Of a DNA stretch of 64,000 nt, positions 9,433-13,505 are shown piece after piece. The position numbers and the translations under genes were made by a program. The notes under the pieces were generated by a model. It did not search any database. It saw only the letters and a program-made list of their open reading frames with translations, and was not told where the DNA came from. Each line of letters starts with the position of its first letter. The stretch's first letter is position 1. Source of the stretch: Bacteroidetes bacterium 43-93 (GTDB taxonomy: Bacteria; Bacteroidota; Bacteroidia; Chitinophagales; Chitinophagaceae); contig MKUO01000004.1 in assembly GCA_001897855.1 (NCBI GenBank), positions 248,001 through 312,000 of the forward strand. The letters run 5' to 3'.

Positions 9433-10049
9433 TCCTGAAATACTTTGCCGACTTTACAGATACTCAACTGCAACAGTTTGGCCAGCTCGAAGAGCTCTAT
9501 AAAGAATGGAATGAAAAGATCAACGTCATTTCCCGAAAGGATATCGACTCGCTTTACGAGCGCCATGTATTACATTCTCTTGCCATAGCTGCAGTTTGCA
9601 CCTTCAGCAAAGGTGCAGAAGTGGTTGATATAGGTACAGGCGGAGGCTTCCCCGGTATTCCGTTAGCTATATTCTTTCCCGAGGTAGAATTTCTGTTATC
9701 AGATAGCATTGGTAAAAAAATAAAGGTGGTGCAGGGCGTGGCCGATGCCATAGGCCTTAAAAATGTAACTGCCGTGCATAAAAGAGTAGAGGAGATAAAA
9801 GGACGTTCATTCGATTTTGCGGTATCCCGTGCTGTTGCTCCGCTCGGCGATCTGTGGAAATGGATAAAACCTGCATTGCGTGCCGGCTATAAAAGCGAAG
9901 AATTTCATAACGGGCTTATTTGCCTGAAGGGTGGCGATCTGCGTGAAGAAATAAAAGCATCAGGCTTAAATCCTAAACGATGGAAAGTACATGATATTTT
10001 TCCGGAACCTGCATTTGAAGATAAGTATATACTCTATGTGCAGCGATAA
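9423..10049 (+). CDS. rsmG: 16S rRNA (guanine527-N7)-methyltransferase
   Basis: This 208-aa protein methylates G527 of 16S rRNA with S-adenosylmethionine. The SAM loop VVDIGTGGGFPGIPLAIFFP lies near residues 67-86, preceded by NVISRKD and YERHVLHSL, which are specific to RsmG/GidB. FAVSRAVAPL follows as expected. The start is a GTG at 9423 inside the end of the glycosyltransferase gene, so the two are translationally coupled. A strong terminator follows the stop. Confidence 0.96.
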   Translation: MEIVLKYFADFTDTQLQQFGQLEELYKEWNEKINVISRKDIDSLYERHVLHSLAIAAVCTFSKGAEVVDIGTGGGFPGIPLAIFFPEVEFLLSDSIGKKIKVVQGVADAIGLKNVTAVHKRVEEIKGRSFDFAVSRAVAPLGDLWKWIKPALRAGYKSEEFHNGLICLKGGDLREEIKASGLNPKRWKVHDIFPEPAFEDKYILYVQR

Positions 10050-10056
10050 TGAAAAT

Positions 10057-10083
10057 GCCCCGTAAACACGGGGCGTTTTTTTA
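10057..10083. terminator. terminator between rsmG and small-ORF unit A
   Basis: GCCCCGT (10057-10063) pairs with ACGGGGC (10068-10074), followed by a run of T. It serves rsmG. On the other strand it is equivalent to the GCCCCGT hairpins that end repeat units B and C. Confidence 0.85.
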
Positions 10084-10110
10084 TATATAGAGGATAAGAG
10101 AGTGGACAAA

Positions 10111-10153
10111 TTTAAAAAAGTGCAGCGCGAAGCGACACGCTACACTTTTTAAA
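10111..10153. terminator. long hairpin overlapping the end of small ORF A
   Basis: TTTAAAAAAGTG with AGCG on one arm pairs with CGCT and CACTTTTTAAA on the other, with one C/A mismatch and a loop of about 10 nt. It overlaps the stop codon of the 32-aa peptide. It is probably a minus-strand terminator or an mRNA 3'-end stabiliser. Units B and C lack it. Confidence 0.6.
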
Positions 10154-10247
10154 GATTAACAGCCAGTAGTACACACGAAAGGATAGAAATAAAAAGAACA
10201 ATTCTTTTAGTAGCTTCTGCTTTGCGGAGGATGTTTGACTGTTGCAT
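10149..10247 (-). CDS. small membrane peptide A (32 aa)
   Basis: The predicted peptide is 32 aa. After an N-terminal MQQSNILRKAEATKR it has one hydrophobic helix, IVLFISILSCVLLAVNL. The last 24 residues match the peptides of units B and C (RKxEAxxxIVLFxSILSCxxLAVNL), whereas the 5' part differs. This is the pattern expected of a translated gene rather than a chance ORF. I chose the ATG at 10247 because the other two copies start at the equivalent MQ(Q/H). The role is unknown: candidates are a type I toxin-like peptide or a small regulator of a membrane complex. Confidence 0.72.
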   Translation of the reverse strand: MQQSNILRKAEATKRIVLFISILSCVLLAVNL

Positions 10248-10312
10248 TTGTGTGTTTTTTATTTTTTGTTTTGGGTTGTGTGTGTTTATTTTTTGTTTCG
10301 TTGTTTGTGCTA

Positions 10313-10345
10313 CAAAGATGCTATGATGCAAGCCCCTTTGCCAAA
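10313..10345 (-). promoter_or_regulatory. promoter of small peptide A
   Basis: On the minus strand, TTTG (10345-10342) and CATCTTTG (10320-10313) are separated by 21 bp. This matches the Bacteroidota TTTG / TANNTTTG pattern with one mismatch. The ATG lies about 65 bp downstream, after an A/C-rich leader with very little G. Confidence 0.75.
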
Positions 10346-10358
10346 TTATCAGGGCCGT

Positions 10359-10418
10359 TTAACCGCTTCTTTAAAACTCGTTAACGACCGTCGTTGCAAA
10401 CGATTAACCAGTTATTAA
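10359..10418. promoter_or_regulatory. five-box TTAA array A
   Basis: TTAA cores start at 10359, 10371, 10381, 10404 and 10415, giving spacings of 12, 10, 23 and 11 bp. The nearest core is 14 bp upstream of the -33 TTTG. The same spacings recur in units B and C. Helical phasing suggests cooperative binding of an activator on one face of DNA. The array lies between this promoter and the divergent T9SS gene at 10537. Confidence 0.65.
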
Positions 10419-10536
10419 GAACTGTTCACTTTCTATTTTTGTAAAAAGATTGTAAGGATATGTCTGGCAAGTTTTATTCGTGTTACCGGTGATGTATCTT
10501 AGATATTCCTTCTTTAACCACTTAAAGACCTTTACT

Positions 10537-11844
10537 ATGCGTTTACATTATCTATTCATCTGTATTTTACTTTTTAGCTTTTCTAAACCTTCTAATGCCC
10601 AAACGAACTATCGTCTAAAGGCTATGTCTCGCTACAGTTATAACTATGCCTACAACTATGATACTACACTCCATCTTACAGACTCATTCAGTTATATCTA
10701 TAGCGGCGGAAAGTCAGGCTATATTCCTACAAGCTTTTGGATGCAGGCTCTTAGTAAATTGTCGCTATCAATAGAACTGAATATTATGATGCCCGAAATG
10801 CATTGCGACTCTGTTTACGTATATCGTACTGATACAGGGAAAGTGAAGCCATTTAGGATAAATGTGCAGCATATAAATGCAAATAAGAATATAGATACTA
10901 TTTCACGTTACAATGTTGTGTCAGGACCACCTGTTTATGCCGGACGTGATACATTTGTTTACAACGGTAATACCATGTTAGAATACCGGAGCAGACCTAC
11001 CAACAGGTTATATAAGTACACGTACAACCCCAATGGGTCGTTAGATACCATGTATAACCTGCTTTCAGGCGGCTTTTCTAAATATGTTTATGATGTTAAT
11101 AATAATCTGACAAGTGTTAAAAATATATACTCATCCAACAGTTATACAGAAACGGATTACTTATATTCAAATGGTGTGCTTACCCAAGACAGTGTCACTT
11201 TTACAGTGAATAGCACAACTATAATTGAAATGAAGCATATATACAGCTACGACGCTGCATGGAACCTTGCATCCCAGATCACTCAGAAATGGAATAACCT
11301 AACTACAGATTGGGATAACTACGATCAGCGATATTTTGAATACGATGCCAATCATGTTTTGACAAGCGAAATGTATGCGGCCTGGCATAACAAATGGGAT
11401 ACAAGCGAACTGTATTCATTTTACTATAACTGGTTCGGATTAACTGATAGCATAGTTTCCAAAAGTTGGTATAATGGTTCCTGGCAGCAGTTAGGGAACG
11501 ATTCACTTGCTATACAATCCGATCAGACGTTTAAATTTTACTACGAACCTTATTTTCCTACTACAGTGTCTTCAGTTAAAGAAAAAAATAATAGCTCCCT
11601 GATGCTTTACCCGGTTCCCGCATCTGATATATTGATCATAAGGACAGACAATACACCTTCAAAGCCTTTCCGCGTAGCGATATTTGATATGCAGGGACGG
11701 ATAGTAAGGCAATGGGAAGAACAACCACAGGCCACAACATACACCCGTACTATACCCGTACCCGATCTCTCACCAGGCAATTATGTAATAAAACTGTCCG
11801 GTACAGATATAGATCTTGCCAGGCAATTCTCCATCTCCCGCTAA
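10537..11844 (+). CDS. T9SS type A sorting domain protein with YD-like repeats
   Basis: This 435-aa secreted protein starts at ATG 10537 (MRLHYLFICILLFSFSKPSNAQ, a signal peptide); an earlier in-frame start at 10480 would add 19 residues in front of the signal and is unlikely. The middle has repeated Tyr-rich strands such as YKYTYNPNGSLDTMYN, KYVYDVNNNLTSVKN and YFEYDANHVLTSE, resembling RHS/YD repeats. The C-terminus (SLMLYPVPASDILII ... GNYVIKLSG) is a T9SS type A sorting domain. The gene sits between repeat units A and B and could share TTAA array A, since it diverges from peptide A. Confidence 0.85.
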   Translation: MRLHYLFICILLFSFSKPSNAQTNYRLKAMSRYSYNYAYNYDTTLHLTDSFSYIYSGGKSGYIPTSFWMQALSKLSLSIELNIMMPEMHCDSVYVYRTDTGKVKPFRINVQHINANKNIDTISRYNVVSGPPVYAGRDTFVYNGNTMLEYRSRPTNRLYKYTYNPNGSLDTMYNLLSGGFSKYVYDVNNNLTSVKNIYSSNSYTETDYLYSNGVLTQDSVTFTVNSTTIIEMKHIYSYDAAWNLASQITQKWNNLTTDWDNYDQRYFEYDANHVLTSEMYAAWHNKWDTSELYSFYYNWFGLTDSIVSKSWYNGSWQQLGNDSLAIQSDQTFKFYYEPYFPTTVSSVKEKNNSSLMLYPVPASDILIIRTDNTPSKPFRVAIFDMQGRIVRQWEEQPQATTYTRTIPVPDLSPGNYVIKLSGTDIDLARQFSISR

Positions 11845-11869
11845 AGTGTATTCAATATATGTAATAATT

Positions 11870-11891
11870 AAGCCCCGTAAATACGGGGCTT
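11870..11891. terminator. hairpin ending unit B and the T9SS gene
   Basis: This is a perfect inverted repeat, AAGCCCCGTA / TACGGGGCTT, with a short AAA-type loop. It lies 25 bp after the T9SS stop codon and at the 3' end of peptide-B mRNA. No long U tract is present on either side. Confidence 0.65.
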
Positions 11892-11934
11892 CCATTACAT
11901 ATAGAGGATAAGAGAGAATGATTAAAATGCCTGT

Positions 11935-12063
11935 TTACAGATTAACTGCTAATACCAGGCACGATAGGATAGAAATAAATAGAACGATTTTTATCATTGC
12001 TTCTGATTTGCGGATATGCAGGGTTTGAACTTGTGCCGGGGTAAGATGAAGAGCCTGTTGCAT
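11935..12063 (-). CDS. small membrane peptide B (42 aa)
   Basis: This 42-aa peptide has the N-terminal part MQQALHLTPAQVQTLHIRKS and a single hydrophobic helix IVLFISILSCLVLAVNL ending at the C-terminus. It is 84% identical by eye to peptide C over its full length and shares the last 24 positions with peptide A. Differences between copies fall mostly at third codon positions or are conservative, which supports translation. With no signal-peptidase site and a positive HIRKS-K stretch before the helix, it is probably an inner-membrane peptide with its N-terminus in the cytoplasm. Confidence 0.78.
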   Translation of the reverse strand: MQQALHLTPAQVQTLHIRKSEAMIKIVLFISILSCLVLAVNL

Positions 12064-12128
12064 AAAATGTGTTTTTTATCTTTTGTTTGTGTTGTGTGTG
12101 TTTATTTTTTGTTTCGTTGTTTGTGATA

Positions 12129-12161
12129 CAAAGATGCTATCATGCAAGCCCCGTTGCCAAA
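12129..12161 (-). promoter_or_regulatory. promoter of small peptide B
   Basis: On the minus strand, TTTG (12161-12158), a 21-bp spacer and CATCTTTG (12136-12129), the same geometry as copies A and C. Confidence 0.77.
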
Positions 12162-12174
12162 TAATCAGGGCCGT

Positions 12175-12234
12175 TTAACCGCTTCTTTAAAACTCGTTAA
12201 CCACCATCGTTGCAAATGGTTAACCACTGATTAA
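12175..12234. promoter_or_regulatory. five-box TTAA array B
   Basis: TTAA cores at 12175, 12187, 12197, 12220 and 12231 give spacings of 12, 10, 23 and 11 bp. The array begins 14 bp upstream of the -33 element, exactly as in units A and C. Confidence 0.67.
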
Positions 12235-12279
12235 GAAATGATTTTTCCTTGTTATTTGACGCGTGTATAAACAAAAAAT

Positions 12280-12301
12280 AAGCCCCGTAAAAACGGGGCT
12301 T
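12280..12301 (-). terminator. terminator hairpin of unit C
   Basis: AAGCCCCGT / ACGGGGCTT stem around a short A loop. On the minus strand it is followed by ATTTTTTG, so it fits a rho-independent terminator for peptide C. Confidence 0.75.
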
Positions 12302-12345
12302 CCATTACATATAGAGGATAAGAGAGAACGATTAAAAATGCCTTC

Positions 12346-12474
12346 TTAGAGGTTTACTGCCAATACCAGGCATGATAGAATAGAAACAAATAGAACGATT
12401 TTTATCATTGCTTCTGATTTGCGGATATGCAGGGTTTGAACTTGTGGTTGGGTGATAGAAAGGGCGTGTTGCAT
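12346..12474 (-). CDS. small membrane peptide C (42 aa)
   Basis: This 42-aa peptide begins MQHALSITQPQVQTLHIRKS and ends with the hydrophobic helix IVLFVSILSCLVLAVNL. Compared with peptide B the first 12 residues vary, while the VQTLHIRKSEAMIKIVLF core is identical. The start is supported by the shared MQ(Q/H)A opening. No known domain is recognised. A conserved Cys sits in the middle of the helix in all three copies. Confidence 0.78.
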   Translation of the reverse strand: MQHALSITQPQVQTLHIRKSEAMIKIVLFVSILSCLVLAVNL

Positions 12475-12534
12475 AAATGTGTTTTTTATTTTTTGTTTTG
12501 TTGGTTTGTGTTAGTGTTTTTTGCTTTGATGACA

Positions 12535-12567
12535 CAAATATGGGGGCATCGTGCCTGCGTCTCCAAA
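12535..12567 (-). promoter_or_regulatory. promoter of small peptide C
   Basis: On the minus strand, TTTG (12567-12564), a 21-bp spacer and CATATTTG (12542-12535). The spacer sequence is unlike A and B, but its length is identical. Confidence 0.72.
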
Positions 12568-12580
12568 CATTTTGACCCGT

Positions 12581-12640
12581 TTAACGACCGATTTAAAACC
12601 GGTTAACGCCAATAAATACAACTTGTTAACGACCGTTTAA
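12581..12640. promoter_or_regulatory. five-box TTAA array C
   Basis: TTAA cores at 12581, 12593, 12603, 12626 and 12637 give spacings of 12, 10, 23 and 11 bp. Boxes 1 and 4 carry the longer form GTTTAACGACCG / GTTAACGACCG. The surrounding sequence is diverged from A and B, which makes the retained spacing informative. Confidence 0.68.
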
Positions 12641-12728
12641 GAAATGATTTCTGAAAGCCTTTACAGTAAAGGATATGTATATTTTTTACCGTATGATGCG
12701 GAAATATGCCGGTTCTTTGAATAAAATA

Positions 12729-12760
12729 TTTCAGCTTAGTAAAGACGTTTATTATTTTTG
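12729..12760 (+). promoter_or_regulatory. probable yebC promoter
   Basis: TTTC (12729-12732), a 20-bp spacer and TATTTTTG (12753-12760) fit the Bacteroidota consensus. The ATG is 34 bp downstream. Confidence 0.6.
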
Positions 12761-12794
12761 CGCCCTGAACCAACAACCGAAAATACATTAATAT

Positions 12795-13505
12795 ATGGGT
12801 AGGATATTTGAAGTACGGAAGTCAACCATGTTTGCCCGCTACGACCGTATGGCAAAGCAGTTTAGCCGTGTGGGTAAGGAAATAGCCATCGCGGTAAAAA
12901 AAGGCGGTGCCGACCCTAACACCAACCCTATGCTGCGCCGGGTGATCCAGAATGCCAAATCCTTCAACATGCCGAAGGACCGCATTGAGAATGCTATCAA
13001 AAATGCTTTAGGAAAAGATACCAGCAACTATGATGAGGTACTGTACGAAGGGTATGGCCCGCATGGCGTGGCTATTCTGGTAGTTACTGCCACTGATAAT
13101 ACTACACGTACCGTTGCCAACGTTCGCTCTCATTTTAATAAAGGCGGTGGTACACTGGGTAACAGTGGATCTGTAGCATTCCTTTTTAAGCACATGGGTG
13201 TATTTAAACTGAACCCCGAAGGTCTTAGCACCGAAGACCTGGAACTGGAACTGATAGATGCAGGACTGGAAGAACTGGGTGAAGACAGCGAAGGTAAGCT
13301 GATAGTACGTTGTGCATTCGAAGATTTCGGAAAGATGCAAAAAGCACTGGAAGAAAAAGGGATCACCCCTATATCTTCGGAGCTGGAATGGATACCTGGC
13401 ACCACGGTACAGGTAACAGATGAGCAATCAGAAGATATATTTAAACTGATAGAGCGTGTAGAGCAAGACGACGACGTGCAGCAGGTGTTCCATAATATGG
13501 CATAA
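12795..13505 (+). CDS. yebC: YebC/TACO1 family protein
   Basis: This 236-aa cytoplasmic protein is of the YebC/PmpR family, reported as a DNA-binding regulator and, in recent work, as a factor that relieves ribosome stalling on proline-rich sequences. The family blocks KSTMFARYDRMAKQFSRVGKEI, DRIENAIKNALGK, YEGYGPHGVAILV and NKGGGTLGNSGSVAFLF are present in order. The first residues MGRIFEVRK replace the usual MAGHSKW opening, a common variation in Bacteroidota. It is convergent with recQ. Confidence 0.93.
   Translation: MGRIFEVRKSTMFARYDRMAKQFSRVGKEIAIAVKKGGADPNTNPMLRRVIQNAKSFNMPKDRIENAIKNALGKDTSNYDEVLYEGYGPHGVAILVVTATDNTTRTVANVRSHFNKGGGTLGNSGSVAFLFKHMGVFKLNPEGLSTEDLELELIDAGLEELGEDSEGKLIVRCAFEDFGKMQKALEEKGITPISSELEWIPGTTVQVTDEQSEDIFKLIERVEQDDDVQQVFHNMA

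What the first reader, a model, noticed from the sequence alone, without database searches (positions are those of the whole stretch)
10149..12474. Three copies of an undescribed 32-42 aa membrane peptide
The minus strand at 10149-10247, 11935-12063 and 12346-12474 encodes peptides of 32, 42 and 42 aa. All end in the same hydrophobic helix (IVLFxSILSCxxLAVNL) preceded by RKxEA. Each has its own promoter and terminator-like hairpin. The tandem, homologous, short hydrophobic ORFs resemble the layout of E. coli Ldr/Ibs type I toxins, but the sequence is unlike them. Conserved C-terminal residues with diverged N-termini argue for translation.
Basis: partly seen in the sequence, partly recalled or inferred. 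Interest (0 to 1): 0.85.

Follow-up and report, generated by a model that had tools for sequence, protein, structure and literature searches.

The report
Tiny-peptide genes sharing an RNA tag
Three tiny membrane-peptide genes in a Chitinophagaceae bacterium belong to a multi-copy family whose messages mostly end in the same exact 18-letter RNA tag, and the tag's complement lies at the ends of some surface-protein messages, so each message probably makes both a peptide and a regulatory RNA.

Summary
The three ORFs are real and under strong purifying selection: 75 of 96 single-base codon changes are synonymous, 25% expected. The peptides (about 20-58 aa, one helix with a central Cys, usually ending AVN[L/I/F]) occur in 12 of 15 same-genus genomes and a few other genera. 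Between stop codon and terminator most monocistronic copies carry the identical CTCTCTTATCCTCTATAT: 44 exact sites in 12 of 15 genomes, reversed control 0; 9 of the 44 are stand-alone sRNA-like loci. Variants of this seed+terminator module end genes of a secreted-protein family that shares the promoter motif and, in one subgroup, a signal peptide resembling the tiny peptide. A 17-nt complement follows the stop of a PorP/SprF gene in 11 of 15 genomes, perfect in 9, with one G-U-compatible change in 2. Best reading: a dual-function RNA family, a signal-peptide-like membrane peptide plus a trans-acting 3'UTR sRNA. Type I toxin membership is unsupported: no antisense promoter found, and the seed occurs without the peptide. 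Pairing and peptide function are untested. Closest known: FopS sRNAs and dual-function RNAs.

The parts
10149..10247 (-). peptide ORF, copy 1 (32 aa)
11935..12063 (-). peptide ORF, copy 2 (42 aa)
12346..12474 (-). peptide ORF, copy 3 (42 aa)
10085..10102 (-). invariant 3'UTR seed CTCTCTTATCCTCTATAT, copy 1
11899..11916 (-). invariant 3'UTR seed, copy 2
12309..12326 (-). invariant 3'UTR seed, copy 3
10057..10074 (-). terminator hairpin of copy 1 (GCCCCGTGTTTACGGGGC), also at the end of convergent rsmG
   Evidence: sequence
11870..11891 (-). terminator hairpin of copy 2, also at the end of the convergent T9SS cargo gene
   Evidence: sequence
12280..12301 (-). terminator hairpin of copy 3
   Evidence: sequence
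10114..10148 (-). hairpin plus T-run directly after the copy 1 stop codon and before the seed
   Evidence: sequence
10313..10344 (-). promoter match (-33/-7) of copy 1
12129..12160 (-). promoter match (-33/-7) of copy 2
12535..12566 (-). promoter match (-33/-7) of copy 3
10359..10385 (-). GTTAA..TTTTAAA..GTTAA box array upstream of copy 1
12175..12201 (-). GTTAA box array upstream of copy 2
12581..12607 (-). GTTAA box array upstream of copy 3

Best explanation
Each unit is a small stand-alone gene for a dual-function RNA. The mRNA encodes a peptide with one membrane helix that resembles a signal peptide cut short before its cleavage site. Its 3'UTR (mostly unpaired seed plus Rho-independent terminator) acts as, or releases, a trans-acting small RNA. 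The seed is identical in most monocistronic copies and in stand-alone sRNA-like loci. It base-pairs with complementary sites in mRNAs of cell-surface proteins (3'UTR of a PorP/SprF type IX secretion protein, 3'UTRs of some secreted-protein paralogues, a few RBS or 5'UTR sites) and changes their stability or translation. The copies are probably switched on together through the GTTAA-box promoter they share with the secreted-protein genes, from a truncated member of which the peptide genes may have arisen. Supported by computation: coding selection, the module and its conservation, the shared promoter motif, the complementary sites. Inferred: transcription, sRNA release, pairing in the cell, the sign of regulation, origin by truncation, any peptide activity.
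For: Coding selection. 18-mer exact at 44 sites in 12 of 15 genomes, 4 more with one mismatch, reversed control 0; my sorting: 35 of 44 after a peptide ORF, 9 stand-alone. All 9 stand-alone sites lie 107-311 nt after a gene ending YNFKF and before a gene that looks the same by eye. Flanks diverge (majority identity 0.39 upstream, 0.55 downstream, 57 contexts). Mean unpaired probability 0.73 in the seed against 0.45 for the 110 nt upstream, higher in 71 of 76 sites, which are not independent and include a few seed-B sites that may not be modules. A second seed CTCTCTTATCCCTTATAC with the same layout ends secreted-protein genes and stand-alone loci. 17-nt complement after the PorP/SprF stop in 11 of 15 genomes, 9 perfect, 2 with A-to-G that still pairs as G-U; complements after secreted-protein stops in 5 genomes. 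All 19 genomes with peptide E<1e-6 are among the 22 with RNA E<1e-8, of 394 searched. Promoter match in 50 of 55 upstreams. Peptide-core profile matches the signal peptides of one secreted subgroup at 21-31 bits (8 of 32 proteins).
Against: No expression data. ACATATAGAGGA gives 80 hits in the genus: 40 modules and 40 others, against 21 for the reversed control, so complement sites as a whole are only moderately in excess; the case rests on the conserved PorP and secreted-protein sites. G005 has the seed but its PorP 3'UTR lacks the site. 3'UTR targets are unusual in bacteria. Duplex tests used sites picked for complementarity and so are circular; for two sites shuffled seeds did as well 13 and 3 times in 1000. 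In the window, seed accessibility is clearly high only for copy 1 (0.91 against 0.55); copies 2 and 3 equal their transcript average (0.61/0.60, 0.60/0.57, folded somewhat past the terminator). No consensus fold for the 3'UTR hairpins. 24 of 32 secreted proteins do not match the peptide core and the whole-family test against other hydrophobic N-termini is negative (p 0.90). Co-occurrence is confounded by phylogeny.
Confidence: 0.6

Rival explanations
1. Type I toxin-antitoxin family: the peptides are membrane toxins held down by RNA, like Ldr/Ibs, or by a trans RNA as for ZorO/OrzO. The complementary RNA (for example a PorP 3' end) would be the antitoxin.
For: Multi-copy short hydrophobic peptides, tandem copies. 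Complementarity of 17 nt in trans is in the range I recall for trans type I antitoxins.
Against: No antisense promoter match on the plus strand from 9900 to 12800. The complement pairs with the 3'UTR, not the start codon region. The seed occurs without the peptide. No match to known toxin families.
Confidence: 0.12
2. The invariant 3'UTR sequence is a protein-binding or RNA-processing site (for example for an RRM protein), not a base-pairing seed. The peptides are ordinary small membrane proteins.
For: The conserved stretch of 18-22 nt is longer than most seeds need. RbpB binds FopS sRNAs in Bacteroides (PMC11697453, abstract and passages).
Against: Conserved 17-nt complement after PorP stops with a G-U-preserving variant in 2 genomes, and complements after secreted-protein stops, are not explained by a protein site alone.
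Confidence: 0.18
3. The peptide genes are decaying remnants of secreted-protein genes that kept promoter, signal peptide and 3'UTR; the module is a terminator cassette inherited from them, without function of its own.
For: Shared promoter motif and 3'UTR tags; signal peptides of one subgroup match the peptide core.
Against: Peptides are under purifying selection. Terminator stems and flanks differ while the 18-mer does not. Stand-alone loci keep the seed at a conserved place. No exact 18-mer in viral contigs.
Confidence: 0.1

Closest known systems
FopS paralogous sRNAs with RbpB, Bacteroides thetaiotaomicron (PMC11697453; abstract and passages seen)
   Same: Multi-copy RNA family in Bacteroidota; unpaired conserved seed followed by a terminator hairpin; targets among cell-surface genes.
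   Different: FopS is described as noncoding with a 5' seed acting near start codons of SusC-type mRNAs. Here most copies are mRNAs of a membrane peptide and the best complements are in 3'UTRs of PorP/SprF and secreted-protein genes. No Rfam match; I did not check that Rfam 15 holds FopS, nor compare the two seeds.
Dual-function RNAs, e.g. VcdRP of Vibrio cholerae (PMC8672173, abstract start in search listing); SgrS/SgrT (recalled)
   Same: One short transcript that encodes a tiny protein and carries a base-pairing segment.
   Different: Here several peptide copies per genome (2-7 hits at E<=1, some of them signal peptides of the secreted family) share one seed, which also sits on other genes. 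No sequence comparison with VcdRP or SgrS was made.
Ldr/Ibs and ZorO/OrzO type I toxin-antitoxin systems (recalled; PMC3919570 abstract start in search listing)
   Same: Short hydrophobic peptides, several paralogues, short transcripts.
   Different: No library match, no antisense promoter found, seed exists without peptide.
CcaF1/CcsR of Rhodobacter (PMC10253847 title and abstract start in search listing; CcsR layout recalled)
   Same: Small protein gene linked to a multi-copy C/U-rich sRNA motif.
   Different: CcaF1 is a small RNA-binding protein; here a membrane peptide, and the motif is repeated with each copy.

Membership tests
Type I toxin-antitoxin (Ldr/Ibs type) | short hydrophobic single-helix peptide | tested here: met
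   KD maximum 2.77-2.79 over 17 residues in all three
Type I toxin-antitoxin (Ldr/Ibs type) | antisense RNA gene at the locus | tested here: not met
   no strict or relaxed Bacteroidota promoter on + strand 9900-12800; other promoter types not excluded
Type I toxin-antitoxin (Ldr/Ibs type) | sequence homology to a known toxin family | tested here: not met
   best matches E 0.019 (DUF2633), 0.075, 0.12, all weak
Type I toxin-antitoxin (Ldr/Ibs type) | toxicity relieved by the RNA | not testable with these tools
   needs expression experiments
Dual-function sRNA | encodes a translated small protein | tested here: met
   synonymous bias, p about 4e-27; translation itself not observed
Dual-function sRNA | separate conserved, accessible segment for pairing | tested here: met
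   invariant seed, more unpaired than upstream RNA in 71 of 76 sites
Dual-function sRNA | trans targets regulated by pairing | tested here: inconclusive
   complementary conserved sites found; regulation not tested
FopS sRNA family | homologous seed / Rfam model match | tested here: inconclusive
   no Rfam match; presence of FopS in Rfam 15 not checked
FopS sRNA family | seed plus terminator architecture, multi-copy | tested here: met
FopS sRNA family | pairs near susC start codons | not tested
   no target prediction over a genome was made
DUF2633 (PF11119) | score above Pfam cut-off | tested here: not met
   15.3 and 14.2 bits for copies 2 and 3, cut-off 25
Leader peptide / attenuator | regulated gene downstream on the same strand | tested here: not met
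   copies 1 and 2 face convergent genes, copy 3 is followed by the promoter of copy 2

The most novel reading that the evidence does not exclude
A 3'UTR tag and anti-tag network: signal-peptide-only genes, stand-alone sRNAs and some secreted-protein mRNAs carry a shared seed before their terminator, while other mRNAs, including paralogues of the same secreted family and a type IX secretion gene, carry the exact complement at the same place, so that messages of one envelope regulon control each other by 3'UTR-to-3'UTR pairing.
Probability: 0.4. Interest if true: 0.9.

Novelty: new variant of a known kind. Interest (0 to 1): 0.75.

Why it matters
It would add a family of coding sRNAs to Bacteroidota, where few sRNAs are understood. 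It links tiny membrane peptides, secreted proteins and type IX secretion in one post-transcriptional circuit. It suggests how truncated secreted-protein genes can turn into regulators. The genus-conserved seed and anti-seed pairs make 3'UTR-to-3'UTR regulation directly testable by compensatory mutation.

Tried and rejected
Rejected: leader peptide/attenuator (no downstream gene on the strand); classical cis type I TA (no antisense promoter match); DUF2633 membership; a phage source of the seed (no exact 18-mer in viral contigs); a known Rfam family (none at gathering; only matches far below gathering scores, best E 0.047). Led nowhere: consensus fold of the hairpins between stop and seed (no pairs; the alignment misplaces the arms); structure of the secreted partner (machine busy; one search gave only two weak matches, E 0.098 and 0.73); link of the GTTAA boxes to RprY (the response regulator convergent with PorP scores 250 bits on the RprY model, cut-off 370; no motif paper was read). 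The motif regex was faulty and was replaced.

Complement hits, all told: ACATATAGAGGA gave 80 hits in 15 genomes. All 40 that are not modules were looked at (reverse-strand contexts printed were wrong and were redone there). My sorting: PorP 3'UTR 9, secreted-protein 3'UTR 5, 5'UTR of a second tiny-peptide gene near fabD 4, RBS 4, sense module-like 4, others 14 (sense matches at or near start codons, two unclear, five singletons). Reversed control 21. Orthologous hits are not independent.

Secreted-family 3'UTRs: 26 proteins from loci mostly fetched because of a seed, anti-seed or promoter hit, so the shares are biased: seed A 2, seed B 8, third variant 3, anti-seed 5, none of these 8. Signal-peptide test: 8 of 32 secreted proteins above 8 bits; of 200 control N-termini 5 above 8 bits, three of which look like secreted-family members that my signature missed; Mann-Whitney over all p 0.90.

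The signal-peptide link was found during that check.
Full report
Observation. The three minus-strand ORFs are present as described. In the genus, homologues occur in 12 of 15 genomes (G005 only weakly there but E 3.6e-14 with the profile); G001, G003 and G013 have none. Over 394 family genomes the profile has E<=0.001 in 26 genomes of 9 genera and E<1e-6 in 19 genomes of 5 genera, the window's own included. The window's genome has five copies: three here plus G000:C5:13339 and G000:C1:286712. They share a basic residue or pair, a helix of about 17 residues with a central Cys, and usually the end AVN[LIF]; the shortest are 20 aa. Start codons of the longer ones were chosen by rule. Over the last 20 codons, 45 distinct sequences differ per pair by 7.05, 3.08 and 12.11 bases at codon positions 1, 2 and 3; in 18 disjoint pairs 75 of 96 single-base codon changes are synonymous, 25% expected. 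Selection supports translation; translation was not observed.

The missed element. The 3'UTRs hold CTCTCTTATCCTCTATAT, usually followed by GTAA, between stop codon and terminator. In the genus it is exact at 44 sites in 12 of 15 genomes, with 4 further sites at one mismatch, and the pattern read backwards gives none. By my sorting 35 of the 44 follow a peptide ORF and 9 do not. Some monocistronic copies lack an exact seed: L034 and L044 carry degenerate versions, L046 one mismatch, L047 none recognisable. A second class of peptide genes is bicistronic, with another small ORF (MKS.LLAPIGLLLR.YL-like) and no seed. The 22-mer CTCTCTTATCCTCTATATRTAA occurs at 50 sites in 44 stretches from 21 assemblies of the genome collection, titled mostly as Bacteroidetes, Chitinophagaceae, Flavipsychrobacter or Taibaiella; three stretches titled Azovibrio have the contig lengths of G011 and look mislabelled. 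The seed's 100% follows from how sites were chosen; one search is the fair test.

Stand-alone form. All 9 stand-alone sites lie 107-311 nt after the stop of a gene ending YNFKF and 53-78 nt before a gene that looks the same by eye. In G011 a TAACTTTG element lies about 22 nt before the seed. The expected transcript is little more than a seed plus a terminator, the layout reported for FopS.

Variants. A second seed, CTCTCTTATCCCTTATAC, with the same continuation into a terminator, occurs after secreted-protein genes and at stand-alone loci; G003 and G013, which lack the first seed, have a hybrid CTCTCTTATCCCTTATATGT. A third variant (TTCTTATCCTTCA..ATATGTAA) follows other secreted-protein genes. 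In genus g21 the same kind of promoter stands before a seed variant with at most a two-codon ORF at that place, while tiny peptides there lie at other loci without a recognisable seed in the 140 nt read (3 loci): peptide and seed are separable. A covariance model (R1) gives E<1e-8 in 22 of 394 genomes in six genera; all 19 genomes with peptide E<1e-6 are among them. R1 reaches E<=0.01 in 285 of 394 genomes; of the weak matches I read only a few, and I judge that many are plain terminators.

Regulon and origin. Of 55 distinct upstream regions of peptide genes, 50 have a -33/-7 match, nearly all of them TTTGG-N20-CATnTTTG, with GTTAA boxes mostly 23 and 22 bp apart. GTTAA-N4-TTTTAAA-N6-GTTAA with up to two mismatches has 20 hits in the window's genome against 4 for the control; the six exact ones are the three window copies, one bicistronic peptide gene, one secreted-protein gene and one unknown gene. 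Six of eight TTGCAAA-centred hits lie before secreted-protein genes. These ~180-aa proteins form one family (26 of 26 match at E<=4e-30), without a Pfam match in the three scanned. The core profile scores 21-31 bits on 8 of 32 secreted proteins (one subgroup); the rest score low, an unrelated N-terminus scores 21 bits, and the whole-family test is negative (p 0.90). I read this as a likely origin of the peptide genes by truncation of a secreted-protein gene just before the cleavage site, keeping promoter and 3'UTR tag; convergence is not excluded.

Complementary sites. After the stop codon of a PorP/SprF gene (TIGR03519), within 10 nt and before its terminator, lies TTACATATAGAGGATAG in 9 of 15 genomes and TTACATATAGGGGATAG in 2; the latter keeps pairing as G-U. 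The three genomes without the seed lack it, as does G005, which has the seed. A rough chance estimate for a 17-nt complement in any of about 3,500 3'UTRs is 1e-4 (my arithmetic, not a call). Secreted-protein paralogues carry a 13-14 nt complement after the stop in five genomes. Others lie at RBSs, or in the 5'UTR of a second tiny-peptide gene near fabD. Overall numbers are modest: 40 non-module hits against 21 control hits.

Mechanism. I favour a dual-function RNA: peptide plus 3'UTR seed acting in trans on surface-protein mRNAs. Seeds are mostly unpaired (0.73 against 0.45; 71 of 76 sites), though copies 2 and 3 of the window are only average. Duplex energies to four PorP sites are -24.9 to -26.4 kcal/mol, reached by 0 or 1 of 1000 shuffled seeds; RBS and fabD-peptide sites are weaker (up to 13 of 1000); all sites were picked for complementarity. 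The sign and purpose of regulation are unknown. The peptide may be a membrane stress peptide, a signal-peptide decoy or a mild toxin.

Known systems. I saw the abstract and passages of the FopS paper (PMC11697453); other papers were seen only as search listings with abstract starts. None of these seven listings showed this family; that is no proof that it is unpublished.

Noticed in passing
window 10537-11844 (+): Gene between copies 1 and 2 encodes a protein with a T9SS type A sorting domain (TIGR04183); pairs of peptide copies about 1.9 kb apart recur in other genomes.
   Followed up: partly
L007 / G000:C5:13339, L008 / G000:C1:286712 and relatives L062-L064, L066, L070-L072, L074, L075: Bicistronic version: a peptide of about 20 aa followed by a second small membrane-type ORF, without the seed.
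   Followed up: partly
L173, L177, L178, L181, L185, L188, L254-L261, L270, L372-L378: Multi-copy secreted family of about 180 aa sharing the peptides' promoter motif; 3'UTRs carry seed or anti-seed variants in many members; one subgroup's signal peptide matches the tiny peptide core; some copies sit at contig ends.
   Followed up: partly
L224, L228, L234, L244 (downstream of fabD): Another tiny peptide gene (MSKTLKNVELAVGLVMGVIALYLLMM) whose 5'UTR holds a complement of seed A and a partial complement of seed B; found in 6 of 15 genomes, two of them weak.
   Followed up: partly
L253, L271, L277 (G000:C7:48193 and relatives): Seed-B-like sequence between a response-regulator gene and a divergent small ORF (MRSEIFTKE...), without a terminator; could be a target site or a 5'UTR element.
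   Followed up: no
   Followed up: no
L334, L336-L338 (genus g21): Same promoter type with seed variant GTCTCCATTCTCTCCTTATATACAG; ATAAGGA upstream could pair with TCCTTAT in the seed in some copies.
   Followed up: no
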